A stretch of 6,350 nucleotides of DNA from an uncultured Rhodospirillales bacterium (GTDB lineage: Bacteria; Pseudomonadota; Alphaproteobacteria; Acetobacterales; Acetobacteraceae): the NCBI GenBank assembly GCA_903928045.1, contig CAIYPH010000241.1:1-6350 (forward strand), read 5' to 3'. The notes below the pieces were generated by a model. The model did not search any database. It saw nothing but the letters and a program-made list of their open reading frames with translations, and was not told the DNA's origin. Positions 171 to 5,655 of this stretch are shown here, in pieces (position 1 is the stretch's first letter; every line of letters starts with the position of its first letter). Position numbers and translations under genes: made by a program.

Positions 171-913
171 TCGGCCAACCCGCCGCCTGTCCGCTCGAAC
201 TGCGCGGCATCGGCAAAAGCTACGGCGCCGTCCGCGCGCTGGAAGGGGTGGACCTCGCGATCCGCAAGGGTGAGGTGCTCGGCCTGTGCGGCGACAACGG
301 CGCCGGCAAATCCACCCTGGTGCGCATCCTCTCCGGCGCCGAAACCCCAAGCGCCGGCACCCTCCTGCGCGACGGCGCCGCGGTCCGCTTCGCCTCCCCC
401 GCCGATGCCCTCGCCCAGGGCATCGCCACCACCTACCAGGACCTCGCCCTCGCCCCCCGGCTTTCCATCGCCGAAAACGTCTTCATGGGCGCCGAGCGCC
501 TGCGCTTCGGCCTGCTCGACAAGAAGCGCATGCGTGACGAGGCGGCGGGCTACCTCGCCCGCTTCGGCTTCGGCGCCATCGCCATGGACCGTCCGGTCTC
601 CGACCTCTCCGGCGGCCAGCGCCAGGCGGTGGCGCTGGCCCGCGCGCTGCGCTGGAACGCCCGCATCGTCATCATGGACGAACCCACCGCAGCCCTCGGC
701 GTGGCGGAGAGCCAGGTCGTGCTCGACCTCATCCGCCACATGCGCGCCGAGGGGGTGACGGTGATCCTGGTCAGCCATGACATGGAAGACGTCATCGCGG
801 TCACCGACCGCGTCGCGATCCTGAAAAAGGGCCGCAAGGCCGGCGAAATCGCCACCAGCGCCCTCACCGCGGCCTCGCTCGGGGCGATGATCATGAGCGG
901 AGTGGTGCCATGA
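161..913 (+). CDS. Sugar ABC transporter ATP-binding protein (FrcA-like, single nucleotide-binding domain)
   Basis: This 250-residue cytoplasmic ATPase would power a sugar importer. All hallmarks of an ABC nucleotide-binding domain are present and in order: Walker A GDNGAGKST (44-52), Q-loop glutamine Q93 in TTYQDLALAP, signature LSGGQ (149-153), Walker B IVIMDEP (169-175) with catalytic E174, a D-loop AALGV and the switch histidine H206 in SHDMEDV. The AALGV D-loop and the ENVFMG motif after the Q-loop are typical of the ribose/xylose/fructose importer class. Ribose-type RbsA has two such domains in about 500 residues; this protein has one, as in the fructose importer FrcA. The GTG start at 161 overlaps the upstream stop (168-170) and has GAGGG at 153-157, a rather short spacing; it is chosen because the N-terminus then reaches the usual distance before the first strand. 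The stop overlaps the next ATG (ATGA, 910-913), so translation is probably coupled along the operon. Permease and substrate are not visible. Confidence 0.93.
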   Translation: MALIGQPAACPLELRGIGKSYGAVRALEGVDLAIRKGEVLGLCGDNGAGKSTLVRILSGAETPSAGTLLRDGAAVRFASPADALAQGIATTYQDLALAPRLSIAENVFMGAERLRFGLLDKKRMRDEAAGYLARFGFGAIAMDRPVSDLSGGQRQAVALARALRWNARIVIMDEPTAALGVAESQVVLDLIRHMRAEGVTVILVSHDMEDVIAVTDRVAILKKGRKAGEIATSALTAASLGAMIMSGVVP

Positions 914-1893
914 GCGATCATTTCTCCCCCGTCGCCGAAGCGGTCGCCGCCGGGCGTATCCCTGGCGCGGTGTTCGGCCTGCTGGCGGCGGATGGGACAC
1001 GGAGCGTGCGGGTTGCCGGCCTCGCCCAGCGCGAGCCGGAGCCGGCGGCGATGGCGCGGGAGACCTGGTTCGATCTCGCCTCGCTGACCAAGGTGGTGTT
1101 CACCACGACGGTGATCCTGCGCCTCGTCGAGCAGGGGCTTATCGCGCTCGATGATCCGCTGACCGTCGCCATCCCCGATCTCCGGCAGTACGACGTGGCG
1201 GGCGCAGCCGAGCGGCGACTCACCTTCCGCCAGTGCCTGAGCCATCAGACCCACCTCCCCGCCGTCGAGCCGCTCTATACATACGGGCAGGACCCCAACA
1301 CGCTGCGCGCCTTCGTGTTGCAGCGGGAGTGGCGGGCGGGGCCGCCGGTGTATTCCGACAATAACTTCATCCTGCTCGGCATCGCCATCGAGCGGCTGAC
1401 CGGACGGCCGCTGGGTGAGCTGGCGCCGGAGGGGTTCAGCTTCGGCGCGGAGCCGGCGCGGAGTGCGGCGACCGAGCGCTGCACCTGGCGCGGGCGGGTG
1501 ATGCGCGGCGAGGTGCATGACGAGAACGCCTATGCCCTCGGTGGCGCTTCAGGGCATGCCGGGTTGTTCGGCACCGCGGATGCCTTGCTGGATTTCGCGG
1601 CCGGGTTGATGGCGGGGCGCGTGCTGCGGCCGGAGACGGTGGCGGAGATGGCGACGCGGCAATCCCCGACGCGCGGGCTGGGCTGGGAGATCGCCTATCC
1701 CGGCTGGTCCGGCGGCGATGCATGCGGGAAGCGGACCATCGGCCACACCGGCTTCACCGGCACCGGGCTGTGGATCGACCTCGATGCCGGGCGGGCCTGG
1801 ACGCTGCTGACCAACCGGGTGCACCCCTCCCGATTCTCCGACAGCGGCATTATCGCGCTGCGTCGCGCGGTGGGGGATGCGGTGTGCGGCTGA
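910..1893 (+). CDS. Beta-lactamase-family serine hydrolase
   Basis: This 327-residue protein belongs to the class C beta-lactamase/penicillin-binding-protein-like serine hydrolases. The nucleophile motif SLTK (58-61) sits in FDLASLTKV, the second motif is YSDNN (148-152) with Y148 as likely base, and a KTG-box equivalent HTG lies at 279-281 in GHTGFTGTG. LSHQTHLPA (near 110-118) is the family's L-T-H-T-S-G-L-P segment, and the C-terminal LLTNRVHPS is a frequent motif of the group. Members cleave D-amino-acid peptides, amide bonds in peptidoglycan fragments, or esters; the motifs alone do not choose. No signal peptide is visible (the N-terminus is polar), so it probably acts in the cytoplasm on an imported substrate. 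The start is supported by GCGGAG at 897-902, seven bases upstream. It overlaps the ATPase stop by ATGA, so it belongs to the sugar-import operon. Related hydrolases (E. coli YfeW, B. subtilis AmiE/YbbE) sit in MurNAc recycling loci, so a muropeptide-processing role is possible but inferred. Confidence 0.9.
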   Translation: MSDHFSPVAEAVAAGRIPGAVFGLLAADGTRSVRVAGLAQREPEPAAMARETWFDLASLTKVVFTTTVILRLVEQGLIALDDPLTVAIPDLRQYDVAGAAERRLTFRQCLSHQTHLPAVEPLYTYGQDPNTLRAFVLQREWRAGPPVYSDNNFILLGIAIERLTGRPLGELAPEGFSFGAEPARSAATERCTWRGRVMRGEVHDENAYALGGASGHAGLFGTADALLDFAAGLMAGRVLRPETVAEMATRQSPTRGLGWEIAYPGWSGGDACGKRTIGHTGFTGTGLWIDLDAGRAWTLLTNRVHPSRFSDSGIIALRRAVGDAVCG

Positions 1894-1894
1894 G

Positions 1895-2179
1895 CTAACC
1901 GGCGCGGCGGAGCATCCTGGGTGGCACCCAGGCCGGCTGCACCTGGCCGATCACCAGATCGAGCACGCAGGGTCCGTCATGGTCGATCGGCAGGCGGGCG
2001 TCGCCGTTGGTCCAGCGCCACTGGCGGCCTTCCTCCGTCTCCAGGTGATGGAACCCGGCATCCTCCGACAGGGTGGCGAGTTCGATCGCCCGGCGCCATC
2101 CGGCGCCGCGCAGCGTCGCTGCTTCCACCATGAGGCCGAGCCGGCGGGCATCGCCGCCGCCGTCCTCCGCCTCGGCGGG
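1895..2179 (-). other. Displaced C-terminal segment of the Hint protein (reads in the shifted frame)
   Basis: In the frame one base off the main reading, 94 codons run from 2179 down to a TAG at 1897-1895. The peptide continues naturally from the Hint protein: an Arg-Arg-Leu-Gly segment (DARRLGLMVEAATL) and later GRQWRWTNGDARLPI, followed by a hydrophobic strand VLDLVIGQVQ. RRLG-hydrophobic and RWT(D/N)GDA are, from memory, the style of C-terminus carried by many alphaproteobacterial Hint-domain proteins. The main frame over the same bases gives an Arg/Pro/Gly tail without such features. I therefore read this as the real end of the protein, not as a separate gene; it has no start codon with a ribosome site of its own. 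Confidence 0.75.
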
Positions 2180-5100
2180 CCCCCCCCACCGGCGAGACAA
2201 CCCGCACCTCGCGCGTATCGGCGGGGAGTGCGTAGCGGTGCAGCGCGCCGGCGATCATGCGAGGCGCGATCGCCCGGCCGCCCGCCAGCACCGTGCCATC
2301 CCACGCCGCCACGCGACGGAACCCGCGCCCCGCCGCCTGCCCGGCCAGCATCGCGCGCACGCGCAGCAAAGCCTCGCCATCACGTACCAGCGGCGCGCAG
2401 GCGACGGTGGCCCAAATGGCGAGGGCGAAATCGGGGTGCTGCTGCACCACCGCGCCGCCATTGGCGAAGGCGCCGCGATTGCCGGTGTCGAGGTAGCTCT
2501 CGCAGGGCAGCCCCTCGGCGAACATCACGCCATGGCGCGCGAACTCAACGTGCCAATACGTCACCCGCGCCGCGCGCTCCTGCACGATGGTGGCGCCGTT
2601 CACGAGGTAGCGCACGGGGATCAGCACGCCATCGACGAACACCGCATGATCGGGCGACAGGCGCAGATCGCGCGCCGGCAGCCCCTCCCCGAAGGCGCCC
2701 GCACGGACACGCACAGGCCAAACGTCCTGCGGCCGCGGATGGCGCGCGCAGGCGAGGCTGCGATGGCCGAGCCAAACGATCGCCTGCCCCACACCATCCG
2801 GCCCGGGCACCATGTCGCCCAGCCGCAGCCGCTCCACCGCCACCTCGCCGCGCAAGGTCAGGATGCGCGTGCCGGCGGCGAAGCAGGGGAGTGCCGAGGT
2901 GGTGGTGACATCGGCGTGCGGGGTCGGCGAGGCGGAGCTGAGTTTCTGGGGAACGGTGACGTGGAAGCTGGCGGGGTCATAGCCGGGGCCGATCGGAATC
3001 CGGGTCGTACCGTAACCCGTCGTCACCGCCAATATTCCGTTACTGTAGACCACACTGGCGGTATCCGCGGTCGAAATCGCGGTCACCGTGATGGTGTCGC
3101 CCTGGCGGAAGCCGTGCACGTGGGTATTGATCAACGATGCATTGACCACCCATAGCGATGCCGTTGCATCATCGAGGGTAATCGATTGCCCGGTGGCAAT
3201 CGTGTTCTCCACGAAAAGGGTTGCACCGCTGGCGACATGAATTGCGCCGGTGCCCGAGGTCGCGAGGGGGAGGCTCACCACCCCACCATTGCTCGCATCA
3301 ATAGTGCCGTTGTTGGTCAACGTCGCGGCCAGTGGATCGAACGGGACTCCGCTGGCGAATCCAATGCTACCGCCATCGGCCAGGATCAGCCCATCATTGA
3401 CGATCTGCCCCAATCCACTCGGACCTTGATATGAATTGCCGACCGCCTCGATCGCACCACCGCCGCTCGTGGCATGGATGGTGGTATCCGCGGCGATCGT
3501 GCCGCTGCCAACCGGGAGCGGGCTGTCGGTAGCGCGATTGAACAGGAGGTCACCGCCATCAATGGTCACATCCACGCCGCTGATGACCGTGGGATAGGCG
3601 AACAACAACTGGCGAAGCGGGCCGAAGCTGCCGTTTGGCTGCTGTCCCCCGCCGAGATAAAGGTGCGGCCGCGCTTCGCCCGCATGCGGCTCGAAGGTCA
3701 GACCTCCACTCATCACCTGGGCCGCCGTACCGTTCGCGATGGTCAAATCCCCCACCCAGGTCACGCCATTCCACAGGCCCCCGCCATGGATGAAATCGAA
3801 CTGCCCGCCATCGGCAATGATCGTGCCGGTGATCAGCGGTTCGATAGCCCCGTAATTCGCGGTCGAACTGTCCTGCGGTGATAGGATGCCGGCCTTGAGA
3901 TCGAGCGTGCCGAAATTCATGTCGGCGTTGACGGCGAGCGTGGCGCCAGGCGCGTCGAGCGTCAGGGTGTTGAAGGTGAACGCCGGGTTGGACGACGGGG
4001 CGCTCGTCGCCTTCCCGACGTTGATGCGGTAGGGATAGCCCGGCGCGAAGGTGACGGAGGCGTCGATCGCCGCGCCGGGCACCGCCGATGACCAGTTTCC
4101 CGCGGCATTCCAGTCAAAATTGAACAGGCCGAGGCTGGCGGTGAATATGTCGGGCCCGGTGCCGCCGGGATTAACCGGCGGCACAAAGGGGCTGGGCGAC
4201 GGCGGCGCCACGGTCGTGGTGGTGATCACCGCCATGGCGGCGCCATTGCCGAACGCCGAGGTGTCGGAAATGGTGGCGCTGAAGCTCGCGGGGTCGTAGC
4301 CCTGGCCGATATAGAATTGGGTAATCGCGGTGCCGATCGTCACCGTCAGCACACCGGCGGTATAGGAGAGACTGGGCACGAAACCATAGGGATCATAGGC
4401 GACAATCCGATCGCCCTGGCGGAAGCCGGTGATCGAGCCCTCCGGTTGGGTCGCGAGGGACACGATCGTGGCGGTGGCATCCTGCAAGGCGATGGTCTGG
4501 CCCATCCCGACGTTCTGCCCGAAGGACGCAAGCCACAGCGTGCCGCCGGAGCCTATGCGGATCGTACCTGCGCCTTCCAGATCGGACCCGGTTTGCAACA
4601 TCGCATTGCCCGAGATCGCGATGGTGCCGGAATTGGTCAGCGTCGACCGGCTTGTTGCACTGTAGGAGGGTGGGCCGACATAGAGCGTCCCCCCGCTGAC
4701 CACGAGTTGGCCGGCATTGGTCATCGTGAAGTTTTTAAAGGCAGCAAAGGTGAGGTCATTCACCCCGGAGATCGCCTGCAGCACGGAATCGGCGGCAATG
4801 CCGGTGGCATTCGCCAGGGTGGCCTGTCCGAGCAGCACGACGTCGAATCCGCTCAGGTCGTGATCAATGGAAAGGGAAGTTGCAGGCGCACCAAACGGGA
4901 GCGGCACGAGGTTGCCGAGTGTGAAGACAGGCCGCGCGCCCCCTGGCGCCGGGCCGACGGAGAGGCTGCCGAAGAATTCCGTAGTTGAGAAATGCTGGCC
5001 GTCGGAAGCAATGGTCAGGTCGCCGAGCCAGACCGCATTCTGGAAATAGAGGGGGTGGATGAGGTCCAGTATGCCGCCGTCATCGATGAAGGTGCCGGAA

Positions 5101-5414
5101 AGAACGGGAGCAAGACCGAAATTGCCCGATCCCTCGATGGTGCCGGCCTTCAGGTCCAGCGTACCGAACGTCATGTTCGCCGCAACGTCGAGGGTCGCAT
5201 TCGCGGTATCGAAGATGAGCGTCCCGAAGGTGATCGCCGGGTTCTGGTCCGCACCGACAAGCGTTGTACCGCTGGTGATCGCGTAGCCGAAGCCAGGATT
5301 GTAGGCGAGCGACACGTCCTGCCCGGCGACGGGAACCCCCGCCGACCAGTTGAGGGCGTCGGACCAGACGAAGGAGATAAGCCCGTCTCCAGCGGTAAAA
5401 GTATTGCCGGCCAT
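1895..5414 (-). CDS. Hint-domain protein with duplicated beta-strand-rich modules, frameshifted near its C-terminus
   Basis: The ATG at 5412-5414 opens a frame that continues unbroken to 2187. The N-terminal 820 or so residues hold two copies of a Gly/Ala/Thr/Asn-rich module: VWSDALNWSAGVP (16-28) matches FDWNAAGNWSSAVP in copy two (W17 versus W435), MTFGTLDLKAG (81-91) matches MNFGTLDLKAG (499-509), and both copies end in FRQGD then GYDPASF (372-378, 811-817). A Thr/Pro linker separates them. Such strand-turn repeats usually fold as a beta-helix in surface or secreted proteins. Then comes a Hint domain starting PCFAAGTRI (C844) with SPDHAVF (H923) and YLDTGNRGAF near 970-980, followed by a C-terminal domain. 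No signal peptide is seen; a leaderless export route is possible but inferred. In an eight-G run (2187-2180) the frame slips: as given it ends at 1977 after 1145 residues with a basic Arg/Pro tail, while loss of one G gives 1172 residues ending at 1895, one base from the neighbour's stop. No good Shine-Dalgarno precedes the ATG, and a TGA stop in the same frame lies upstream near 5511-5513. Function is unknown; adhesion or matrix roles are only guesses. Confidence 0.85.
1916..1932 (+). terminator. Hairpin just past the sugar operon stop, terminator-like
   Basis: CCTGGGT (1916-1922) and ACCCAGG (1926-1932) form a perfect 7-bp stem with a GGC loop, 23 bases after the serine hydrolase stop. No T tract follows, so a classic Rho-independent terminator is not shown. 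It lies inside the last codons of the convergent Hint gene, because only one base separates the two stops. It may stop or stabilise the operon transcript; it may also be chance in GC-rich coding DNA. Confidence 0.35.
2180..2187. repeat. Homopolymer of eight C/G at the frameshift point
   Basis: Eight C on the + strand (eight G in the coding sense) mark where the Hint gene changes frame. Coding bases read gtG GGG GGG Gcc. Seven G, or ten, would join the two frames exactly after the Val-Gly-Gly at residues 1076-1078. Mononucleotide runs of this length are prone both to replication slippage and to sequencing error, so the run alone cannot say which is true here. Confidence 0.8.
2475..2891 (-). 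other. Hint (hedgehog/intein-type) domain within the large protein
   Basis: Residues about 842-980 match the bacterial Hint_2 type. The block starts with the candidate nucleophile C844 in PCFAAGTRILT, followed by VAVERLRLGDMV. After a W-L-G-x-R segment come WPVRVRAGAFG and LRLSPDHAVFVDGVLIPV, where H923 is the likely counterpart of the block-B histidine that assists the N-S acyl shift. The domain closes with TYWHVEFARHGVMFAEGLP and SYLDTGNR. No His-Asn pair followed by Cys/Ser/Thr marks a C-terminal splice junction, so cleavage at the domain's start fits better than splicing. Activity is inferred, not shown. Confidence 0.8.
2943..4154 (-). repeat. Protein-level repeat module 2 of the Hint protein
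   Basis: Residues about 421-824. It begins DIFTASLGLFNFDWNAAGNW, then FTFNTLTLDAP, MNFGTLDLKAG, a DGGQFDFIHGG segment and TWVGDLTIANG, matching module 1 in order. The second half contains TNNGTIDASNGG, GQSITLDDATASL and FRQGDTITV and ends GYDPASFHVTV. A Thr/Pro-rich spacer (VAPPSPSPFVPPVNPGG) separates it from module 1, and a Ser/Thr/Pro stretch joins it to the Hint domain. Confidence 0.8.
4254..5408 (-). repeat. Protein-level repeat module 1 of the Hint protein
   Basis: Residues about 3-387. It opens with TFTAGDGLISFVWSDALNWS, contains ITFGTLIFD and MTFGTLDLKAG, a DDGG-x-LDLIH segment, VWLGDLTIA, then GTIAISGN and FRQGD, and closes with GYDPASF. The same landmarks recur in module 2 at about 418 residues further on (W17/W435, M81/M499), growing to 439 at the end because of insertions. 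DNA similarity is visible but much diverged, so the duplication is not recent. Confidence 0.8.
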
Positions 5415-5455
5415 CAGATAATGCCCGCAATGAAAGCGATACTGTCCCGTACCAT
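5414..5455 (-). CDS. Possible 13-codon upstream reading frame coupled to the Hint gene
   Basis: ATG at 5455-5453 begins MVRDSIAFIAGII and ends at TGA 5416-5414, which overlaps the Hint gene's ATG as TGATG. It has an AGGGGG six bases upstream, whereas the Hint ATG has only a pyrimidine-mixed stretch (cattatctg) before it. This layout is what translational coupling by ribosome re-initiation looks like. The peptide has no recognisable function, and so short a frame may arise by chance; the case rests on the ribosome-site contrast and the exact overlap. Confidence 0.35.
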   Translation of the reverse strand: MVRDSIAFIAGII

Positions 5456-5461
5456 TGAACG

Positions 5462-5467
5462 CCCCCT
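5462..5467 (-). promoter_or_regulatory. Shine-Dalgarno-like AGGGGG upstream of the short leader frame
   Basis: Read on the minus strand, AGGGGG ends six bases before the ATG at 5455. It is the only good ribosome-site candidate within 70 bases upstream of the Hint gene, whose own ATG lies 47 bases beyond it, too far for direct use. Confidence 0.4.
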
Positions 5468-5644
5468 GTTCTTCTTCGCTCCAGAAGGGGGGCCAAAGGC
5501 CAAGCAGTATTCACCCGCCGATCATTGCAGGGACCGTAGACGGGTTCCGATTCCGGCACAATTGCCAAATTGAAGTCGCAGCACCTGGGCATCGCTTCCC
5601 CCGTTGGGCGGTCGACGCGGGGCGAGGTTGATGACGAAACCGCT

Positions 5645-5655
5645 CCCCCCCCCCC
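5645..5655. repeat. Run of eleven C
   Basis: The longest mononucleotide run in the window, in the intergenic region about 190 bases upstream of the leader frame of the Hint gene (read on the minus strand) and about 155 bases before the small + strand gene. It would be expected to slip during replication; whether its length affects any promoter is unknown. Confidence 0.85.

What the first reader, a model, noticed from the sequence alone, without database searches (positions are those of the whole stretch)
2180..2187. Frame switch in a G8 run near the C-terminus of the Hint protein
Seen: the long frame and the frame giving a sensible C-terminus meet exactly at an eight-base homopolymer; one G fewer fuses them into 1172 residues ending one base from the next gene's stop. 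As given, the protein loses 94 residues and gains a 67-residue Arg/Pro/Gly tail. Inference: either a sequencing/assembly error, a recent mutation, or an on/off (or tail-swapping) phase-variable switch of a surface-type protein. The remainder of the gene has no other lesion, which speaks against old decay.
Basis: partly seen in the sequence, partly recalled or inferred. Interest (0 to 1): 0.7.

Follow-up and report, generated by a model that had tools for sequence, protein, structure and literature searches.

The report
Frameshifted tail of a Hint protein
In a bacterium whose nearest held relatives are uncultured Alphaproteobacteria, one of many similar proteins has probably lost half of its last folded domain through a small natural reading-frame break at a run of eight Gs; most likely an ordinary recent mutation rather than a built-in switch.

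Summary
In detail: beside eight G (minus strand) at 2180-2187 the 1145-aa Hint frame leaves, and another frame takes up, the family's C-terminal domain. The other frame's 94 residues match 91 of 120 homologs at E<=1e-3; the Arg/Pro tail matches, at that level, only P0001, a near-identical record. P0001 has the same frame and tail but differs by F965L, so a one-off read error is unlikely. A sister allele, P0122, is also out of frame there, by a different change (inferred from its protein). Both syntenic DNA orthologs (L001, L002) are intact and lack the run, so no switching tract is conserved; eight G is below the cut-off used for Neisseria. Best reading: a recent, lineage-specific frameshift truncating the beta-sandwich after an intact Hint domain, in a family with 27-28 matches per genome in two relatives. 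Twelve of 42 relative loci show no sandwich half, and four frame splits lie elsewhere in the family in 12 genomes, so the loss is probably tolerated. Phase variation and systematic sequencing error are not excluded; raw reads would decide. Interest is low.

The parts
2180..2187 (-). G8 run beside which the two reading frames meet
1977..5414 (-). 1145-aa ORF as given: passenger repeats, Hint_2 domain, half sandwich, out-of-frame tail
4251..4730 (-). best Hyphal_reg_CWP (PF11765) stretch in the passenger, residues 229-388
   Evidence: 108.8 bits, cut-off 28; two stretches
2484..2888 (-). Hint_2 domain (PF13403), residues 843-977, complete, first Cys at 844
   Evidence: 156.2 bits, cut-off 28.4
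2190..2483 (-). post-Hint helices and first half of the beta-sandwich (residues 978-1075), still in the long frame
1980..2180 (-). 67-residue Arg/Pro/Gly out-of-frame tail
   Evidence: only P0001 matches at E<=1e-3 among 120 homologs; next best P0052, E 0.006
1895..2179 (-). second half of the beta-sandwich in the other frame (94 codons plus stop)
910..1893 (+). convergent serine-hydrolase-type gene (Beta-lactamase family PF00144), syntenic in L001 and L002

Best explanation
A recent, naturally occurring, lineage-specific frameshift at a G8 run in one member of a large Hint_2 paralog family. Replication slippage is the likely cause (inferred). The predicted product keeps its passenger and a complete Hint domain but loses the second half of a C-terminal beta-sandwich, replaced by an Arg/Pro/Gly tail that matches no homolog but the near-identical P0001 at E<=1e-3 (shown from sequence). 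If Hint cleaves at its first Cys, as in related autoprocessing domains, the passenger could still be released (inferred), so the change removes an accessory module rather than the whole protein. Redundancy among paralogs probably lets it persist (inferred).
For: P0001 shares frame and tail but differs at residue 965, where L001 has Leu like P0001, and L002 and P0122 have Phe like the window, so both alleles look natural. P0122, with 19 of 216 residues different before the break (one of them its start Met), is out of frame at the same point by another change. L001, L002, P0002 and P0123 read through. The second frame retains coding character and the seven invariant residues of the domain, so the break is young. 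Four frame splits without an assembly gap occur at other sites in the family in 12 genomes. 28 and 27 Hint_2 matches in G001 and G002. G/C runs are indel-prone in high-GC P. aeruginosa, shown there in MMR-deficient lines (PMC4702332, passages).
Against: The DNA and origin of P0001 were not seen; it may come from a related assembly made with the same technology, and the same run could be misread twice. P0122 is one Logan contig, and its lesion is read from the protein only. None of the four other family splits lies at a run of 5 or more, so slippage is not shown to be the family's usual route. In the wild-type lines of PMC4702332 only one indel lay in a homopolymer. No raw reads were available.
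Confidence: 0.68

Rival explanations
1. Sequencing or assembly error in the homopolymer; the gene is intact in the organism.
For: The lesion sits at the only run of 7 or more inside the three genes recognised in the window; the second frame is still conserved; the orthologs are intact.
Against: P0001, with a different residue 965, has the same frame and tail; sister allele P0122 is also out of frame there; the 6-base runs inside the ABC gene (453-458) and the Hint gene (4689-4694) lie in open frames.
Confidence: 0.17
2. Phase-variable switch: slippage in the G run toggles between a sandwich-bearing and a truncated Hint protein.
For: A run in a surface-type gene whose other frame is preserved; such G/C runs can mutate and revert (PMC4702332, passages).
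Against: The run is absent in L001 and L002; eight G is below the >=9 cut-off used for Neisseria (PMC5953494, passages); no length variant was seen, though only proteins were available for P0001 and P0122; the longest G/C run in the profile-matched part of the 42 relative loci is 7, in frame; a run this long turns up in about a quarter of synonymous shuffles.
Confidence: 0.1
3. Programmed +1 frameshifting or transcriptional slippage at the run yields a fraction of full-length protein.
For: A G run is a possible slippery stretch, and the downstream frame is still constrained.
Against: No such site in the two syntenic orthologs, which need none; P0122's junction, inferred from its protein, lacks the run and is out of frame; the local hairpin folds no better than shuffles (26 of 200 fold as well).
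Confidence: 0.05

Closest known systems
Hint_2 (PF13403) proteins of Alphaproteobacteria
   Same: Complete Hint_2 profile, first Cys, SPDH, YWHVE and LDTGN motifs; C-terminal sandwich encoded
   Different: Frame leaves the sandwich midway; the only such split among the window and 42 relative loci
Homopolymer (SSR) phase-variable genes, e.g. Neisseria
   Same: G run inside a surface-type ORF at the point of frame change
   Different: Run of 8, absent in both syntenic orthologs, no length variants seen
Hedgehog-type Hint with a C-terminal adduct recognition region
   Same: Hint fold followed by an extra C-terminal region (PMC2362128, passages)

Membership tests
Hint_2 (PF13403) | Profile score above the curated cut-off | tested here: met
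   156.2 bits against 28.4
Hint_2 (PF13403) | Hint fold | tested here: met
Hint_2 (PF13403) | Self-cleavage activity | not testable with these tools
   needs biochemistry
SSR phase-variable gene | Tract at or above the published G/C cut-off (>=9) | tested here: not met
   eight bases; cut-off from PMC5953494 passages
SSR phase-variable gene | Tract conserved at the orthologous place | tested here: not met
   0 of 2 syntenic DNA orthologs
SSR phase-variable gene | Run-length variation between strains or clones | tested here: inconclusive
   P0001 same frame; P0122 different junction; both seen as proteins only; no reads
Programmed frameshift site | Conserved slippery site with conserved split frames | tested here: not met
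   both syntenic orthologs have one frame and no run
Hint-containing polymorphic toxin | Variable toxin domain after Hint | tested here: not met
   The C-terminal domain is one conserved sandwich, present in 30 of 42 loci; the Hint ORF has no toxin family hit in Pfam, NCBIfam or PADLOC

The most novel reading that the evidence does not exclude
Hint proteins of this clade repeatedly shed their C-terminal sandwich, an unassigned module that may recognise an adduct or sort the cleaved product, by breaking the frame at one loop (window/P0001, P0122 and, judged from its protein, the distant P0089 appear to break there), with selection favouring tail-less forms and the G run making the loss reversible in the window's lineage.
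Probability: 0.1. Interest if true: 0.5.

Novelty: new member of a known kind. Interest (0 to 1): 0.2.

Why it matters
Mainly as annotation: the Arg/Pro tail should not be treated as a protein feature, and the gene should be marked as truncated in this lineage unless reads say otherwise. It also suggests that the sandwich after Hint_2 is a separable module, so its role could be tested by comparing natural forms with and without it.

Tried and rejected
Site hot-spot: of 241 homolog proteins collected, 212 reach model position 290 or more, 19 end before 205, and 10 end between; of these 10, P0001, P0122, P0089 and P0178 carry a long unmatched tail and stop at 231-239 (P0178 looks like an in-frame loss), and 6 stop with 2-6 residues left. 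In 12 whole genomes (216 match rows by the per-genome tallies) I picked five frame-split pairs by eye from neighbouring rows; one (L065) is a run of N, and the other four lie elsewhere (hc.hmm positions about 51/173, 65-71, 105/109, 134/135). So no hot-spot is claimed; the protein list favours late breaks because hits were ranked on the Hint part. Not examined: 12 rows with a stop inside the match, and several matches that end mid-model, some at contig ends.

Homopolymers as a general cause in the family: 0 of those 4 splits have a run of 5 or more within 30 nt.

Hairpin at the run: folds no better than shuffles (26 of 200 as good).

Finding the window's own genome or a closer relative: none held; among 299 genomes of G001's family, 234 have some match but, among the listed rows, only G001 and G002 match the whole 1301-base query. 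Literature: 'Hint domain' with 'Acetobacteraceae' gave 0 papers; 'Hint_2' was read as hint2 and the ten listed papers, by their titles, concern other subjects.

Full report
What is there. The minus strand carries a 1145-codon ORF (5414..1977) with Hyphal_reg_CWP-type passenger repeats and a complete Hint_2 domain, residues 843-977. Eight G lie at 2180-2187. A profile built from 51 of the 121 homolog proteins then held (those with the Cys motif and a suitable length, P0001 left out) matches the long frame up to model position 231 and a second frame from 227 on, so the frames change within about 14 nt, 3 nt from the run. The second frame ends one base from the convergent hydrolase gene's stop.

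Which frame is the family's. The 94-residue second-frame piece aligns to 91 of 120 homologs at E<=1e-3; the 67-residue tail aligns to 1 of 120 at that level, P0001, the next best being P0052 at E 0.006. The 120 are the listed best of 2380 hits and include P0001. In the second frame the third codon positions are 86% GC; in the long frame after the run they are 55%. Nei-Gojobori dN/dS after the run, second frame, is 0.49 and 0.30 against L001 and L002, compared with 0.39 and 0.50 just before the run; residues unique to the window number 10 of 94 and 13 of 97. These are small samples. All seven invariant columns of the sandwich alignment (28 of the 30 sandwich loci; L026 and L029 left out) lie after the break, and by eye the window's second frame keeps them.

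Relatives. L001 (Lac Pavin MAG) and L002 (Umea MAG) are syntenic, hydrolase 91-92% identical, read through in one frame, and have no G run there. P0002 and P0123 also carry the intact C-terminus. P0001 has the window's frame and tail and differs at one residue of 1145, F965L; its source is given only as ncbi/ena, one contig of 13,175 nt, a cluster of two members, and its DNA was not seen. P0122 (Logan, 284 aa) differs at 19 of 216 residues, one being its start Met, and after VVSP reads the third frame; of the single shortenings of 1-59 nt tried, only a 32-nt one across the run (four equivalent placements) reproduces its junction. P0121 (78 aa, 5 differences) is the second-frame piece as its own predicted protein, and its sequence is compatible with P0122's tail in two frames; the state upstream of it is unknown. 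So the C-terminus appears out of frame in at least two distinct alleles of this clade, in two different ways, while the four outgroup sequences examined are intact.

How ordinary is it. G001 and G002 hold 28 and 27 Hint_2 matches. Of the 63 loci then held, four duplicates were dropped; 42 of the other 59 have a Hint match. Of these 42, 30 have Hint plus sandwich in one ORF, 12 have no detectable sandwich half, and 0 are split. Eleven of those 12 end within 2-35 residues of the match; the twelfth, L007, runs on for 292. One of the 12, L022 (G002:C48), ends near a TGA that the longer profile match reads through, so it may be decayed rather than naturally short. In 12 genomes four frame splits without N lie elsewhere in the family, none at a run of 5 or more; assembly error in these is not excluded. 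G/C runs of 8 turn up in about a quarter of synonymous shuffles.

What is lost. An AlphaFold2 model of the L002 Hint-to-end region (334 aa, pLDDT 94) shows a Hint fold (6-138), helices, and a beta-sandwich at about 195-325. Window residue 1075 corresponds to model residue 237, so six strands stay and six go. The sandwich alone (pLDDT 92) has no clear PDB match. The same module also appears in several ORFs without a listed Hint match.

Mechanism and alternatives. Shown from sequence: frame break, intact upstream parts, preserved second frame, a second record with the same frame, a sister record with another break. Inferred: slippage as the cause; tolerance through redundancy; continued Hint cleavage. 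Papers were seen only as passages: PMC4702332 (G/C runs are indel-prone in MMR-deficient lines; only one wild-type indel lay in a homopolymer), PMC5854121 (single-base indel rate rises with run length in mutS lines), PMC5953494 (Neisseria cut-off of nine), PMC2362128 (region after Hint in Hedgehog relatives). Phase variation would need length variants, which I could not look for; systematic error would need the same mistake in two records.

Noticed in passing
window 5645-5655: A C11 tract (G11 on the Hint strand) 231-241 nt upstream of the Hint start, longer than the coding run. The stretch does not align to L001, which has no G/C run of 8 or more in its 10.7 kb.
   Followed up: partly
window 5415-5568 and L001 1362-1515: A conserved leader block upstream of the Hint gene; a 22-base core occurs in 1 of 63 loci, L001.
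   Followed up: partly
G022:C14, G002:C64, G001:C177, G195:C122, G209:C286 and others: The C-terminal sandwich occurs in ORFs where no Hint match was listed, so it looks like a separate unannotated module.
   Followed up: no
L064, L066, L067, L068: Other Hint genes of the family split between two frames, without homopolymers at the break. L065 is an N gap, not a shown split.
   Followed up: partly
L007: A Hint ORF runs on 292 residues past the match into a kinase-like sequence; a lost stop, a fusion or an assembly join ('kinase-like' is by eye).
   Followed up: no
P0089: A distant homolog stops matching at the same loop and goes on with a similar Arg-rich tail, 265 residues long.
   Followed up: partly
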